Translations under genes and position numbers: made by a program
Source of the DNA: a virus
IMG/VR virus record: IMGVR_UViG_3300024265_000043
Coordinates: 19,715 to 83,714 of that record
Length of the DNA: 64,000 nucleotides
Strand: one strand, 5' to 3'
Part shown: piece by piece, positions 910-63,448 of the stretch
How positions within the stretch are numbered: the stretch's first letter is position 1
How the letters are laid out: every line of letters starts with the position of its first letter
Notes under the pieces: generated by a model
Database searches by the model: none
What the model was told of the DNA's origin: nothing
Seen by the model: the letters and a program-made list of their open reading frames with translations, nothing else

Positions 910-1103
910 AAGGATACGAGCCATCTCCAGGTAGAGAAGTCAAATTGCCTTGGAGATTGCTGGAGATGATTACTGCAAAGGCATGGGGTATCCCGCCTCA
1001 CAAATGGGACCTTATGCCTTTGAATAGTCGCGCAGAAATGATTGCTGTTAATGATATTGAAGGATTAATAACAAGTTATAGGCAAGAACCAGAAGAAAAA
1101 TGA
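301..1103 (+). CDS. tail assembly chaperone, long form (G-T type fusion by -1 ribosomal frameshift)
   Basis: Frame 0 is read from 301 to 882 (194 codons). A -1 slip on CCCTTTC (876-882) then continues in a frame that is open from 864 to the TGA at 1101-1103, adding 73 residues and giving 267 in total. The added part ends with a segment containing AWGIPPHKWDLMPLNSRAEM, a compact conserved-looking domain with no start codon or ribosome site of its own. This matches the classic lambda G/GT arrangement, where a minority product carries the T domain that binds tail tube protein. The stop overlaps the next ATG at 1100. Confidence 0.8.
876..904 (+). promoter_or_regulatory. -1 programmed frameshift signal: slippery heptamer plus hairpin
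   Basis: CCCTTTC at 876-882 fits X XXY YYZ in the correct reading phase (C CCT TTC). A 5-nt spacer (883-887) is followed by a perfect 6-bp hairpin, TCCCTC (888-893) with GAGGGA (899-904), loop ACGCC. The zero-frame stop is at 907-909 and the -1 frame stays open to 1103. Spacing and order are those of known bacterial -1 sites. Confidence 0.85.
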
Positions 1104-28557: not shown

Positions 28558-29259
28558 CTATTCTTCCATATCTATGAACACTAAATCTTCAATATATTCT
28601 CGTGCTTGAGTAAAAATAGGAATCTCATAATCGGTTGACAAATCCTTCGACGATACGCAGAAACCACGCTTTTCTTTCGTTTGAAGGTCATTCCAATTCA
28701 CGCCATGCTCTTCAAATAGCATATCTTGAATTTGATCGTTTTTCAGTCCTTGCATTTTTTTATGGCTGATTAAAGATTGCCCCAAAGACTGGATGCTGTT
28801 CCTGGTGGCATCCTGTTGTCTCCAAATGAAATAGTTTGCAACTTCTTCTTTTGGCAGGATAAAAGCCCTTGAGTCAAACGTTACTAATCCTGGGATCGAA
28901 AATCCTGTTGATTGTGCGGCGGCATTGAATTGATACGTAGATATGCCAGCACTCACGCTCACGATTTTTTGCAGGGAATTATCAAACCAAGAAGAAGTAT
29001 CTCGTTTCTTGTAATTTATCATCAGAATAGAAATCTCATCGCTCTGCACATAGGCTAGAACGGCATTCTGCATTTCAGATACTAGCCTTCGAGCCGTTTG
29101 CGCCATTAATTCCATCATCCTTGGGTCAAAAGGCTTTTCCATGCCTCTAGTGACTGTATGAAATGCCTTGCCGTCTATGCGAACTATTACTGGAGATCGC
29201 TCAGGCATCTTTATGGAAAATGCCTTCTCATATTTTTTCATTCTATCGCTTAAATTCAT
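28558..29259 (-). CDS. Thg1-like protein (tRNAHis guanylyltransferase / 3'-5' polymerase family)
   Basis: 233 residues. Matches the family along its length: VIVRIDGKAFH with metal ligand Asp29, AYVQSDEISIL with Asp74-Glu75, SVSAGISTYQFNA, then TFDSRAFILP and YFIWRQQDATRNS in the second half. Family enzymes add nucleotides 3'-5' to tRNA 5' ends, either G-1 on tRNAHis (Thg1) or repairing truncated tRNAs (TLPs). Strong GGAGGA before ATG 29259. No tRNA gene was recognised in the window, so the substrate would be host or distant phage tRNA. Confidence 0.88.
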   Translation of the reverse strand: MNLSDRMKKYEKAFSIKMPERSPVIVRIDGKAFHTVTRGMEKPFDPRMMELMAQTARRLVSEMQNAVLAYVQSDEISILMINYKKRDTSSWFDNSLQKIVSVSAGISTYQFNAAAQSTGFSIPGLVTFDSRAFILPKEEVANYFIWRQQDATRNSIQSLGQSLISHKKMQGLKNDQIQDMLFEEHGVNWNDLQTKEKRGFCVSSKDLSTDYEIPIFTQAREYIEDLVFIDMEE

Positions 29260-36239: not shown

Positions 36240-36284
36240 GCCGCCGCTGGTAGTCAACCAGGCAATGAGTACACATTCGGCGGC
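36240..36284 (-). ncRNA. three-way-junction RNA element, copy 2
   Basis: Outer stem GCCGCCG/CGGCGGC (7 bp, 36240-36246 with 36278-36284). On the minus strand: AATG/CATT hairpin with 6-nt loop, linker GC, then CTGGT/ACCAG hairpin with 5-nt loop abutting the 3' outer strand. Lies between the methyltransferase stop and the ribosome site of the 90-aa gene. Confidence 0.65.
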
Positions 36285-38948: not shown

Positions 38949-38985
38949 CGTCTAACCTCATTATTTATTATTTTGTTCTATCCGT

Positions 38986-39033
38986 GCCGCCGTCGGTATC
39001 GCTCCGAATCAAGGGCTAAACCCTTTCGGCGGC
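38986..39033 (-). ncRNA. three-way-junction RNA element, copy 3
   Basis: Outer stem GCCGCCG/CGGCGGC (38986-38992 with 39027-39033). Minus strand: AAGGG/CCCTT hairpin (loop TTTAG), short linker, then TCGG/CCGA hairpin (7-nt loop) abutting the 3' outer strand. Sits between the 75-aa gene stop and the 200-aa gene start. Confidence 0.65.
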
Positions 39034-39044
39034 TAGCTGTGAGG

Positions 39045-39272
39045 TTAAACAGCCAAATTCGCAAAGTAAATATCTGCATTGTCGCGTCTATCGGCTGGAA
39101 AACTTTGCCCATAATTCACCCCGTCTATTGAGAAGGTGACGGAAATACAGGCCTTGTTTTTGCGCACACCAGCACCAGCAACGACCAGACCGTCACCAAT
39201 AGTCACCATTTTTAGTGGATTGCCATTTGCCGTGGTGCCTGTTTTGATTATTTTTCTTGTCGCCATTTCCAT
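39045..39272 (-). CDS. hypothetical protein, 75 aa
   Basis: ATG 39272 chosen: GAGGTTAAAATC precedes it. The longer frame to 39332 would be translated through RNA element copy 4. Gly/Ile-rich beta protein (VTIGDGLVVAGAGVRKN). Unrecognised. Confidence 0.6.
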   Translation of the reverse strand: MEMATRKIIKTGTTANGNPLKMVTIGDGLVVAGAGVRKNKACISVTFSIDGVNYGQSFPADRRDNADIYFANLAV

Positions 39273-39297
39273 GATTTTAACCTCGTTTTCTGTTAGT

Positions 39298-39339
39298 GCC
39301 GCCGTTGGATTTGACTCCGTGCCTCCATGCATCGGCGGC
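39298..39339 (-). ncRNA. three-way-junction RNA element, copy 4 (weaker)
   Basis: Outer stem GCCGCCG/CGGCGGC (39298-39304 with 39333-39339) is intact. Inner hairpins are shorter: TGC/GCA (6-nt loop) and GGA/TCC (6-nt loop), with two extra bases before the 3' outer strand. Lies between the clamp gene stop and the 75-aa gene start. Confidence 0.5.
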
Positions 39340-39353
39340 TGTTCATGTCCCCC

Positions 39354-40436: not shown

Positions 40437-40477
40437 TTTTCTGCCTTTCGATTGTTGTTTAACCTCATTCGTTAGTT

Positions 40478-40522
40478 GCTACCGTAGGCAATGAGCCTAG
40501 TAATGCCGTCGCATTCGGTAGC
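40478..40522 (-). ncRNA. three-way-junction RNA element, copy 5 (upstream of the clamp gene)
   Basis: Outer stem GCTACCG/CGGTAGC (40478-40484 with 40516-40522). Minus strand: AATGC/GCATT hairpin (loop GACG), linker AC, then TAGGC/GCCTA hairpin (loop TCATT) abutting the 3' outer strand. All three stems differ in sequence from the other copies but stay paired. Confidence 0.7.
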
Positions 40523-40528
40523 ATTCCT

Positions 40529-41936: not shown

Positions 41937-41982
41937 GCCGTCGTAAGTAATGGACTTAGTAAGGGCTGTACCCTTCGACGGC
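41937..41982 (-). ncRNA. three-way-junction RNA element, copy 6
   Basis: Outer stem GCCGTCG/CGACGGC (41937-41943 with 41976-41982). Minus strand: AAGGG/CCCTT hairpin (loop TACAG), linker AC, then TAAGT/ACTTA hairpin (loop CCATT) abutting the 3' outer strand. Followed by ACTCACTGAGGTTAAAC and the next ribosome site. Confidence 0.7.
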
Positions 41983-42521: not shown

Positions 42522-42734
42522 AATTCTAGAATCAATTTCGCCCCTCACTACCTCATTGTCAAGTCTTTTCTTATCTTTTTTATTATCTCATTCGTACTCC
42601 TTATATATAGGGCATACCACCCCAAACTTTATTTTAAAGCAAATGTGTGAATATTACGTCACATCATCGCCTAGCAACTCTTAATATATAAAGTACCCCA
42701 TAGCGTCCCCTTATATCTCTTGTATATACTCTCT

Positions 42735-42771
42735 ACTCATGCCCTTTTAAAGGACTTACACCATATATCAC
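42735..42771. repeat. 36-nt direct repeat, copy 1
   Basis: ACTCATGCCCTTTTA followed by an ACTTA and CCAT pattern; matches copy 2 at 42931-42967 with about six mismatches. The 15-bp core is identical. Could be a protein-binding site or part of two parallel promoters. Confidence 0.7.
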
Positions 42772-42930
42772 ACTTATTATATGTTGCTTATATCTTATAT
42801 ACTGGTAATCATTCAGTAATACTAACCTGCTACTACACCACACCACCTAACTAGAACAGCAACAAGGCACCCCTAAAGTATATATATTCTCAATATGATA
42901 CACTGCACATAGCACAGCACACAACGCCCC

Positions 42931-42967
42931 ACTCATGCCCTTTTACTGAACTTAGCCCATGTATATA
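42931..42967. repeat. 36-nt direct repeat, copy 2
   Basis: Second copy of the ACTCATGCCCTTTTA element, 196 bp from the first, followed by CCATGTATATA. Confidence 0.7.
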
Positions 42968-43344: not shown

Positions 43345-43358
43345 TATATACGTATATA
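43345..43358. promoter_or_regulatory. 14-bp palindrome next to a repeated box
   Basis: TATATACGTATATA is a perfect palindrome six bases before repeated box 1 (43364-43381). Typical of a dimeric regulator site. Confidence 0.45.
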
Positions 43359-43363
43359 ATTAC

Positions 43364-43381
43364 ACCATCCAGAAATGGACC
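43364..43381. promoter_or_regulatory. repeated operator-like box 1
   Basis: ACCATCCAGAAATGGACC, identical to box 2 at 43515-43532. The core TCCAGAAATGGA is an inverted repeat with 4-bp arms. Located upstream of the GntR-type gene, so it may be its operator. Confidence 0.6.
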
Positions 43382-43514
43382 AGTTTTGTTTGAATCACCT
43401 AGACAATTATGTGATATCACACTTTATTATGTTAATTAGAATGATTTGTCTTAATTAGAAGATATTGATTTCATGGGACTTAAGTGTTATGCTTGTATGT
43501 AGTACTATAAACAT

Positions 43515-43532
43515 ACCATCCAGAAATGGACC
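43515..43532. promoter_or_regulatory. repeated operator-like box 2
   Basis: Exact second copy of the 18-bp box, 151 bp after box 1 and 216 bp before the GntR start. A spacing of about 14 helical turns could allow looping. Confidence 0.6.
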
Positions 43533-50292: not shown

Positions 50293-50363
50293 TTAATTCA
50301 TGGATGTTGTAATAAAATGTCTTAAATTCAAATAGATTCAATGCAGTTCCAAGATCCCTCATA

Positions 50364-50440
50364 GAAACACCGCTCTCTCATAGGCGGTCCTTGCCCCACG
50401 GAGTTATTTGCCTTTCGCCGTGGGGTGTTTCTTTTCCTGA
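50364..50440 (+). terminator. terminator with an alternative three-way-junction fold
   Basis: CCCCACGG (50394-50401) pairs with CCGTGGGG (50418-50425), followed by TGTTTCTTTTCC: a plausible terminator. The same bases sit in a bigger fold: GAAACA (50364-50369) pairs with TGTTTC (50426-50431), CCGC pairs with GCGG (50370-50387), and the 8-bp hairpin abuts the 3' outer strand, the same architecture as the minus-strand elements. Confidence 0.6.
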
Positions 50441-51967: not shown

Positions 51968-52224
51968 AAAAGATAAAACTGCATAAAGATTTTATAACGG
52001 AGTTTACAGCAAACGGTAGAACCTACCTGCTCGCTGAAGTCAAGGTTGTTTTGCCTGGCGGGATTACTTCTCAAAAACTCGCCTATGTGAATATATCTGA
52101 GGGACGTACCGCTCAAATAGCATTGAGCGCGGGCGCGGCAGTTACAGATGATCTACAGCCAATAGACGATGATGATATTATCAGGTTGATAGGTCACGAA
52201 ATTGTTAAGAAAGAGACCAAATAA
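51964..52224 (+). CDS. hypothetical protein, 86 aa
   Basis: ATGA start, TAATG end. Beta-rich with a DDDD tract near the C terminus (PIDDDDIIRLIGHE). Unrecognised. Confidence 0.6.
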   Translation: MKKIKLHKDFITEFTANGRTYLLAEVKVVLPGGITSQKLAYVNISEGRTAQIALSAGAAVTDDLQPIDDDDIIRLIGHEIVKKETK

Positions 52225-52442
52225 TGGCACGCAAAAAAATGTATCGAGTTGGCGATTATATTGAAACCTTCGATGAACTTGAAGAAATATTCAAGGTATC
52301 TAATTTTATAATGCTGGATTGCGGAGACCGAGGTGAGCCGAGATGGCTTCCCAAGCATAAGGGATTTATAGTTTCAATGATGTATCATGTGGTTCGCAAT
52401 CGGCTTGCATCTAAAAAATTGGCAGTCGCGATTAAGAATTAG
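52224..52442 (+). CDS. hypothetical protein, 72 aa
   Basis: TAATG start. Basic, with VSNFIMLDCGDRGEPRW in the middle. No family. Its stop lies in the first RNA stem of the next intergenic region. Confidence 0.6.
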   Translation: MARKKMYRVGDYIETFDELEEIFKVSNFIMLDCGDRGEPRWLPKHKGFIVSMMYHVVRNRLASKKLAVAIKN

Positions 52443-52800
52443 CCCCAAAGATTGGCTTTTGCATCCTTGTCCAGAGGAATGCGAAGGGGCGCGGTTTAAT
52501 TCCGTGCGGGGCTGCTATTTGAAATGCTGGTAGTGTGCAGAATGCTAATAAAGACTAAAGCACGTAGGGCTGAAGTCTGAAGAAGGCTGGTCGTCCCTCC
52601 CTACATTATGAGGCACCACAGCCCAAGAATCCAACCTTCTACCAGCAGATTTTTGAAATATGGGAGTGCGGATGATCACATCACGTCTCTTAAGGGGGAT
52701 TCCGGGTATCCGGGGACACCGCACTCCCATTTAACTTGCTGACTGAAGGGCTCATGTCGCACTAAATATGGTGCAAGAAAATTCTGGCATGAGCCCGTTG
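52440..52800 (+). ncRNA. intergenic region of four consecutive structured RNA elements
   Basis: 377-base gap without a gene, filled by stems: AGCCCC/GGGGCT (52441-52446 with 52508-52513) enclosing hairpins including GCGCGG/CCGTGC with a 7-nt loop abutting the 3' strand; GCTGGT/ACCAGC (52526-52531 with 52641-52646) enclosing AGACT/AGTCT and AGAAGG/CCTTCT; a 12-bp stem ATGGGAGTGCGG (52660-52671 with 52719-52730); GGGCTCATG/CATGAGCCC (52748-52756 with 52788-52796) enclosing GCAC/GTGC. Ends just before the TTGGAGGAATT ribosome site of the next gene. Could be leader elements, decay blocks or small RNAs. Confidence 0.65.
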
Positions 52801-52819
52801 GCATAACATTGGAGGAATT

Positions 52820-53116
52820 ATGGTAAAATGTACACAATGCGAACAAGATACGGCTGGGAATCATGCGCTAGATTGTCCTACTCTTATTGGTAAAACGGTT
52901 CTGTTTCCCGAGAATGCTCCATTCCAATTCATTCCCGAGACGCCAACCGTTCGACAATTCTTTGCAGCTCACGCTTTGCAGGGGATAATTAGCAACGCCG
53001 ATACGATGCGAGAAATCACAAGAAAATGCGAATACGCCCGCAAGGAGGACGAATTTTTCGAAATTGTTGCGGCGATGGCATATCTATACGCTGACGCCAT
53101 GATTGAGGTTAAGTAA
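52820..53116 (+). CDS. zinc-finger hypothetical protein, 98 aa
   Basis: ATG 52820, GGAGGAAT upstream. MVKCTQCEQDTAGNHALDC carries a CxxC and a later Cys. Remaining part helical. TAATG overlap with the next gene. Unknown. Confidence 0.65.
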   Translation: MVKCTQCEQDTAGNHALDCPTLIGKTVLFPENAPFQFIPETPTVRQFFAAHALQGIISNADTMREITRKCEYARKEDEFFEIVAAMAYLYADAMIEVK

Positions 53117-62293: not shown

Positions 62294-63448
62294 ATGCATA
62301 GAGGATTTACAGTCAAGATATATCCAAACAAGGCTCAAGAAGAGTTGCTTGGAAAAAATTTCGGGTGCTGTCGATGGGTTTATAATCATATGCTTGTTAT
62401 CAGTCAGAAAAAATATCATCGGACTGGAAAGACTTTAAGTGGTAGAGATATGCAATATTACTTACCTAAACTCAAAAAACAATATCCTTGGCTCGCAGAA
62501 GCGGGTAGCCAATCGCTTCAAATTGTTTGTCATAATTTGGCCGATGCATACAATCGTTTTTTTAAAGGTCTTGCGAAATACCCAAAATTTAGGAAAAAGG
62601 GTAGTAGAGGTTCTTTTACATGCATTAATAATTCGCGGATTAATGAAACGCATGTTCGTATCCCCAAAATTGGGGAAATCCGATATCGCGGTGGAGATAT
62701 ACCAAATGGGATTGCCAAAAGATTTGTTATAAATGAAAGAGCGGGAAAATATTATTGTTCAATATTATTTGAAATTCCCCAGAAAAAGCCCTCCCCACTT
62801 CCAATAGATAATATTTTGGGGATTGATCTTGGAATCACAGATATGGTAGTAACGAGCCAGGGGCTTTCTGTAAAATCTACTCGTCCTATGAAAGAGGCCA
62901 AATCCAAATTGCAAGCGGCATCTAAGGCTTATTCTCGAACTGAAATAGGGAGTAACCGTCGCAAAAAAGCAAAGCAAAAGTTAAAATTGCTCCACGAAAA
63001 AGTCGCGAATCAGCGCAAAGATTTTAATCATAAATTATCAAGAATGTTCGTTGATAAAGGCGATAACCAAGCCTTTGCCGTTGAGGATTTGAATATTAAG
63101 GGAATGATGTCAAATCATAAATTGGCTTTTCATATATCCGATATGGGATGGCATCAATTTCTTACTTTCCTAGAGTATAAGGCCGCTGCTGTTGGCAAGC
63201 ACGTTATAAAAGTGGATAGGTATTTCCCGTCCAGCAAAACCTGCTCTGTATGTGGACTTGTACTAGAATCTTTGCCGCTTAATATCCGAGAGTGGACTTG
63301 CGAATGCGGAAGTATTCATCATAGAGATATTAATGCTGCAATAAATATTGCTTATGAGGCGGCGAGGAACTCCGTCTCTAAGCGTGGAGATCAGGTAACT
63401 CCATCAATATTGATGGCTCCGATCAATGAAGCGCGAAGTCCCGCTTAG
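62294..63448 (+). CDS. tnpB: TnpB, RNA-guided nuclease of the IS200/IS605 group
   Basis: 384 residues, full length. The RuvC catalytic residues are intact: Asp178 in GIDLGITD, Glu264 in VEDLNIKG, Asp345 in HRDINAAINIA. Zinc ribbon Cys317, Cys320, Cys336, Cys338. N-terminal helix-rich OrfB domain (MHRGFTVKIYPNKAQ). No TnpA transposase is beside it, so it is a lone element or uses one elsewhere. No ribosome site precedes ATG 62294. The stop codon lies in a hairpin that could be the end of its guide RNA. Confidence 0.95.
   Translation: MHRGFTVKIYPNKAQEELLGKNFGCCRWVYNHMLVISQKKYHRTGKTLSGRDMQYYLPKLKKQYPWLAEAGSQSLQIVCHNLADAYNRFFKGLAKYPKFRKKGSRGSFTCINNSRINETHVRIPKIGEIRYRGGDIPNGIAKRFVINERAGKYYCSILFEIPQKKPSPLPIDNILGIDLGITDMVVTSQGLSVKSTRPMKEAKSKLQAASKAYSRTEIGSNRRKKAKQKLKLLHEKVANQRKDFNHKLSRMFVDKGDNQAFAVEDLNIKGMMSNHKLAFHISDMGWHQFLTFLEYKAAAVGKHVIKVDRYFPSSKTCSVCGLVLESLPLNIREWTCECGSIHHRDINAAINIAYEAARNSVSKRGDQVTPSILMAPINEARSPA

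What the first reader, a model, noticed from the sequence alone, without database searches (positions are those of the whole stretch)
52440..52800. Gap of 377 bases filled by four large structured RNA elements
Four successive stems of 6-12 bp (including a perfect 12-bp stem closing 47 nt and a 9-bp stem closing 31 nt), each with inner hairpins, occupy the whole gap up to the ribosome site of the 98-aa gene. The first looks like a degenerate cloverleaf (stem AGCCCC/GGGGCT, last hairpin with a 7-nt loop abutting its 3' strand), but it lacks a usable anticodon arm and CCA. Such density suggests functional RNA, perhaps plus-strand relatives of the minus-strand family.
Basis: partly seen in the sequence, partly recalled or inferred. 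Interest (0 to 1): 0.65.

Follow-up and report, generated by a model that had tools for sequence, protein, structure and literature searches.

The report
Structured untranslated RNA between phage genes
A 377-base untranslated gap inside a gene cluster of an orphan bacterial virus is packed with RNA folds much stronger than chance, probably signals in the messenger RNA, but no relative exists in the searched collections to show that they are conserved.

Summary
The window is part of an 83.7-kb phage contig with no close relatives found. The described stems are all present. The gap folds well beyond chance on the + strand (z -5.5, 0 of 100 shuffles; the - strand is weaker). In a scan of 72-nt windows over 64 kb, the windows at elements 4 and 3 rank first and second of 5,328. 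Elements 1, 3 and 4 are predicted three-way junctions. Element 2 is only marginal. There is no Rfam match, no credible tRNA (relaxed ARAGORN hits are as common in shuffled DNA), no supported ORF, no above-chance promoter and no terminator. I therefore read it as an untranslated intercistronic segment of the plus-strand mRNA; a cis-acting processing or translation-control role is most likely but inferred. A covariance model of them does not match the plus-strand gap, so the two are not shown to be related. Conservation could not be tested, so function remains unproven.

The parts
52443..52819 (+). untranslated intercistronic gap, 377 nt, in a plus-strand gene cluster
   Evidence: neighbouring gaps in the cluster are mostly overlaps to about 20 nt
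52441..52513 (+). E1: predicted three-way junction; outer 6 bp (7 with a flanking U-G), 9-nt linker, 13-bp hairpin with a 1-nt bulge, 6-bp hairpin with 7-nt loop UUUAAUU abutting the outer 3' strand; 4 G-U pairs
   Evidence: (z -3.0 on +, -0.3 on -)
52525..52647 (+). E2: 9-bp stem closing 105 nt with uncertain interior
   Evidence: (z -1.8 on +, -2.7 on -)
52660..52730 (+). E3: predicted three-way junction; 12-bp perfect stem (16 bp with bulges) enclosing two adjacent hairpins
   Evidence: z -4.5; second of 5,328 windows
52748..52796 (+). E4: compact predicted three-way junction; 11-bp outer stem (one G-U), 6-bp and 3-bp hairpins; optional outer extension 52737-52803 of low probability (0.14-0.35)
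   Evidence: z -6.2; first of 5,328 windows
52811..52815 (+). ribosome site GGAGG of the 98-aa gene, unpaired in the predicted fold
52224..52442 (+). upstream 72-aa gene, no family match; its stop codon overlaps the start of E1
52820..53116 (+). downstream 98-aa gene, weakly related to phrog_2201/20565 (unknown function)

Best explanation
The gap is an untranslated segment of a polycistronic phage plus-strand mRNA that folds into several stable modules, three of them three-way junctions. I think it acts in cis: the long paired stems separate the upstream genes from the 98-aa gene and those after it, by serving as double-strand cleavage and end-protection signals and by leaving the GGAGG ribosome site free on a structured 5' end. 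Shown here: folding far beyond chance, strand preference for E1, E3 and E4, an unpaired ribosome site in the model, no promoter-like site in the gap and no intrinsic terminator. Inferred: that it is transcribed as one RNA, and the processing and translation role.
For: z -5.46 for the gap plus edges; E3 and E4 windows rank second and first of 5,328; E1, E3 and the E4 region each carry 4 G-U pairs and are 5-13 kcal/mol more stable on + than on -; E1 z -3.0 on + against -0.3 on -. There is no promoter-like site inside the gap, the regional count is no higher than in shuffles, and none of the terminator-like sites lies in the gap. E1 begins inside the preceding stop codon and the ribosome site is left unpaired, which fits a co-transcribed intercistronic element. 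The phage demonstrably carries structured RNA-like elements just upstream of other genes (minus-strand family).
Against: No relative of the locus was found, so there is no covariation or conservation. E2 is marginal and folds better on -. No ribonuclease site can be proven from sequence. The host and its promoters are unknown, so absence of a sigma-70-like promoter is weak evidence. Homologues of the 155-aa gene two genes downstream sit, in other phages, directly behind another gene with no such gap.
Confidence: 0.42

Rival explanations
1. A separate phage non-coding RNA (one of about 370 nt or several small ones), cut from or transcribed apart from the mRNA, that acts in trans on the host or on another phage, for example as a regulator, a decoy or an unintended trigger of defence.
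For: Self-contained domains in a row that fill the whole gap. Stable RNA domains without coding capacity. Precedent for a structured phage RNA of about 400 nt sensed by a defence enzyme: cabRNA (PMC10686824).
Against: No promoter-like site in the gap, and no terminator. No Rfam family. No copy elsewhere in the contig.
Confidence: 0.25
2. A cis-acting site that modifies RNA polymerase or binds a phage regulator, in the manner of HK022 put RNA antitermination or of a translational repressor site.
For: Stable nascent hairpins within a long operon; put RNA is a precedent for a structured cis-acting phage RNA that suppresses termination (PMC9378689, abstract). The phage has a repeated junction element upstream of five minus-strand genes.
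Against: It lies in mid-cluster rather than at an operon start. No sequence or structure match to a known element. The plus-strand elements are not repeats of one another.
Confidence: 0.13
3. DNA-level feature, such as a replication, recombination or packaging site that extrudes hairpins.
For: E3 and E4 stems are largely Watson-Crick and fold on both strands (z -3.8 and -4.7 on -), and E2 folds better on -.
Against: G-U pairs in E1, E3 and E4 stabilise only the + RNA; E1 has no excess structure on -.
Confidence: 0.07
4. Degenerate tRNA genes.
For: E1 has a 6-bp arm with a 7-nt T-loop-like loop UUUAAUU stacked on a 6-7 bp acceptor-like stem.
Against: No tRNA at normal settings. Relaxed hits are as frequent in shuffled DNA: 177 against 157-211. 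No D arm, usable anticodon or CCA.
Confidence: 0.02
5. No function: non-coding DNA that happens to fold, for example the remains of an inserted element.
For: No conservation can be shown. Strong windows occur elsewhere, also inside genes. The 155-aa gene two genes downstream lacks such a gap nearby in other phages.
Against: Three of the top-ranked windows of the 72-nt scan fall in one 377-nt gap and all favour +. Phages rarely keep unused gaps of this size.
Confidence: 0.11

Closest known systems
RNase III processing hairpins between early genes of phage T7 (from general knowledge; not compared by sequence)
   Same: stable stems in intercistronic mRNA of a phage, just upstream of ribosome sites
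   Different: here several branched three-way junctions in a row; no cleavage shown; T7 sites are simpler hairpins
HK022 put RNA (PMC9378689)
   Same: structured cis-acting RNA in a phage transcript
   Different: put elements act in early phage transcription; this gap is mid-cluster and matches no Rfam family
cabRNA of staphylococcal phages (PMC10686824)
   Same: phage RNA of about 400 nt with secondary structure
   Different: cabRNA comes from terminase coding sequence and was shown to bind a CBASS cyclase; this is an untranslated gap with no such test
Minus-strand three-way-junction family of the same contig (36240-36284, 38986-39033, 40477-40523, 41937-41982, degenerate 39296-39341)
   Same: three-way junction just upstream of a start codon
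   Different: 45-48 nt, conserved AA..UU arm and flanking motifs; its model does not match 52442-52820

Membership tests
tRNA / degenerate tRNA | detected by a tRNA model above background | tested here: not met
   0 genes at normal settings; relaxed hits no more frequent than in shuffles
minus-strand three-way-junction family of this phage | match to covariance model R1 | tested here: not met
   filters off, E up to 10: no hit within 52442-52820
minus-strand three-way-junction family of this phage | three-way junction within about 25-40 nt upstream of a start codon | tested here: met
   E4 ends 23 nt before the ATG at 52820; resemblance of position only
any Rfam 15 family | score above the gathering threshold | tested here: not met
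RNase III-type intercistronic processing site | double-stranded stem in intercistronic mRNA | tested here: met
   predicted E3 and E4 stems in the gap; prediction only
RNase III-type intercistronic processing site | cleavage by RNase III | not testable with these tools
   needs an infection transcriptome or an in vitro cleavage assay
HK022 put RNA | suppresses pausing and termination by the host polymerase | not testable with these tools
   functional assay needed
phage trans-acting sRNA | discrete RNA with its own promoter and terminator or processed ends | tested here: inconclusive
   no promoter-like site in the gap, no terminator, but the host promoter type is unknown

The most novel reading that the evidence does not exclude
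A previously undescribed multi-domain phage RNA of about 370 nt, made of tandem three-way junctions, that works as a discrete RNA during infection, in a phage that also uses a separate repeated three-way-junction element to control a set of minus-strand genes.
Probability: 0.2. Interest if true: 0.65.

Novelty: new member of a known kind. Interest (0 to 1): 0.4.

Why it matters
If it is functional, it adds an RNA element without a described family to a phage lineage without known relatives, and it can be tested with a simple infection transcriptome. The accompanying minus-strand family, which shows covariation among its own copies, suggests that this phage relies on structured mRNA elements more widely.

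Tried and rejected
Search for the gap by DNA similarity in phage records: only chance matches of about 36 nt. Relatives through the 98-aa gene gave four distant loci in unrelated settings. The ATPase, tail protein and terminase gave none in viral contigs; the capsid gave one weak 45-residue match whose locus shares nothing else, and nothing in genomes. Tail protein, terminase, capsid and ATPase had no match in phage records. The Thg1 gene gave 80 loci, but almost none share other genes and none has a good match to the minus-family model. Pattern scan for the minus family found two chance hits inside coding-like sequence and a leader pattern found none. The nearest TnpB-bearing genome gave no match to the family model or to the ATPase. 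tRNA reading rejected. Reading of the antisense and short ORFs as genes rejected: no family match. A genome-wide scan for three-way junctions by local folding proved uninformative because such folds are common at modest energy. Group I intron, riboswitch and large ornate RNA readings find no support, since nothing matches Rfam.

Full report
What the sequence is. The window is positions 19715-83714 of an 83,714-base virus record that carries tail, helicase, nuclease, sliding-clamp and terminase-like genes. It is a phage without close relatives in the collections searched: its terminase, capsid, tail protein and ATPase have no usable counterpart. The finding lies in a plus-strand gene cluster in which neighbouring genes overlap or are separated by few bases, with a few larger gaps.

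The observation. The stop codon TAG of a 72-aa gene ends at 52442 and the next supported gene (98 aa) starts at 52820. The stretch 52430-52822 folds at -144.1 kcal/mol on the plus strand against a mean of -117.2 for dinucleotide-preserving shuffles, z -5.46, none of 100 as good. The untranslated part alone gives z -4.0 on plus and -2.2 on minus. Coding stretches of the same length nearby give z between +1.3 and -1.8. In a scan of 72-nt windows on both strands the windows at E4 and E3 are first and second of 5,328, and E1 is also among the strongest places. In 50-nt and 100-nt scans other places score as high or higher, so the rank depends on window size.

Anatomy. E1 (52441-52513), E3 (52660-52730) and E4 (52748-52796) are each predicted as a three-way junction: an outer stem enclosing two hairpins, the second abutting the outer 3' strand. 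Pairing probabilities of the outer stems remain at about 0.85-1.0 when 1.4 kb of context is folded, apart from a frayed end pair of E3. E1, E3 and the E4 region each contain four G-U pairs and are 5-13 kcal/mol more stable on plus than on minus, which speaks for RNA of the plus strand. E2 (52525-52647) is different: only its 9-bp closing stem is well determined, its energy is marginal on plus (z -1.8) and it folds better on minus. So the claim of four equal elements should be reduced to three strong and one weak.

What it is not. No Rfam family matches at the gathering threshold, and the permissive search gives one chance hit. ARAGORN finds no tRNA; with relaxed thresholds E1 is called, but so are 177 places in the window, as many as in shuffled sequence. 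Short and antisense ORFs in the gap match no phage family. No terminator-like site lies in the gap, no promoter-like site lies in it, and the regional counts do not exceed those of shuffles. The gap has no second copy in the contig.

The minus-strand family. A descriptor scan for compact three-way junctions found four on the minus strand, at 36240-36284, 38986-39033, 40477-40523 and 41937-41982. Aligned, eight of sixteen pairs show changes on both sides, 97% of cells pair, and none of 500 shuffles reaches the covariation score; with only four copies from one genome this counts few events. The covariance model recovers all four and a degenerate fifth at 39296-39341 (E 0.029). Each lies about 23-40 nt upstream of a minus-strand start codon, and most are followed by similar leader sequence such as CTAAC and GAGGTTAAA. 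The model finds nothing in the plus-strand gap.

How it most likely works. I favour a cis-acting intercistronic element: one transcript runs through the gap, the stable modules are cut or protect a new 5' end, and the exposed GGAGG leads the 98-aa gene. Folding, strand preference for E1, E3 and E4, and absence of an obvious separate transcription unit are shown; transcription, cleavage and translation effects are inferred. A separate RNA acting in trans is the main rival; a structured phage RNA of about 400 nt that a defence enzyme senses is a published precedent for such behaviour, though not for this sequence (PMC10686824). HK022 put RNA (PMC9378689) is a precedent for action on the polymerase.

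Limits. Homologues of the 155-aa protein two genes downstream occur in Mycobacterium and Leptospira phages, directly behind other genes and without such a gap, so the element is not tied to that gene. The host is unknown. The finding is a credible structured RNA with an unproven role.

Noticed in passing
36240-36284, 38986-39033, 40477-40523, 41937-41982 (-), degenerate 39296-39341 (-): Family of compact three-way junctions with compensatory changes, each about 23-40 nt upstream of a minus-strand start codon, most followed by CTAAC and GAGGTTAAA-like leader sequence; likely a repeated cis-regulatory or processing element, no Rfam match.
   Followed up: partly
39039-39050 and 38950-38962 (-): At the 38986-39033 copy, the ribosome-site sequence TGAGGTTAGAC can pair with GTTTAACCTCA at the end of the preceding gene, closing an outer helix around the junction and hiding the ribosome site (fold).
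   Followed up: no
50363-50432 (+): Another predicted three-way junction of about 70 nt in an intergenic gap, z -3.6 on plus.
   Followed up: partly
976-1022 (+): Perfect 9-bp stem around a 29-nt loop, strongest 50-nt window of the whole scan (z -6.3), probably inside a short coding sequence between 909 and 1100.
   Followed up: no
28558-29259 (-): Thg1-like (tRNA-His guanylyltransferase family) gene in a phage stretch with no tRNA gene in the window; related genes occur in many viral contigs.
   Followed up: partly
62294-63448 (+): TnpB-like (OrfB_IS605, Cas12f1-like) gene in the phage; nearest relative found is 54% identical, in a Rhodospirillaceae MAG; its guide RNA was not sought.
   Followed up: partly
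42728-42964 and 43355-43532: Short direct repeats (41 nt, 78%; 27 nt, 89%) in the divergent AT-rich region between the minus and plus gene clusters, possibly a control or replication region.
   Followed up: no
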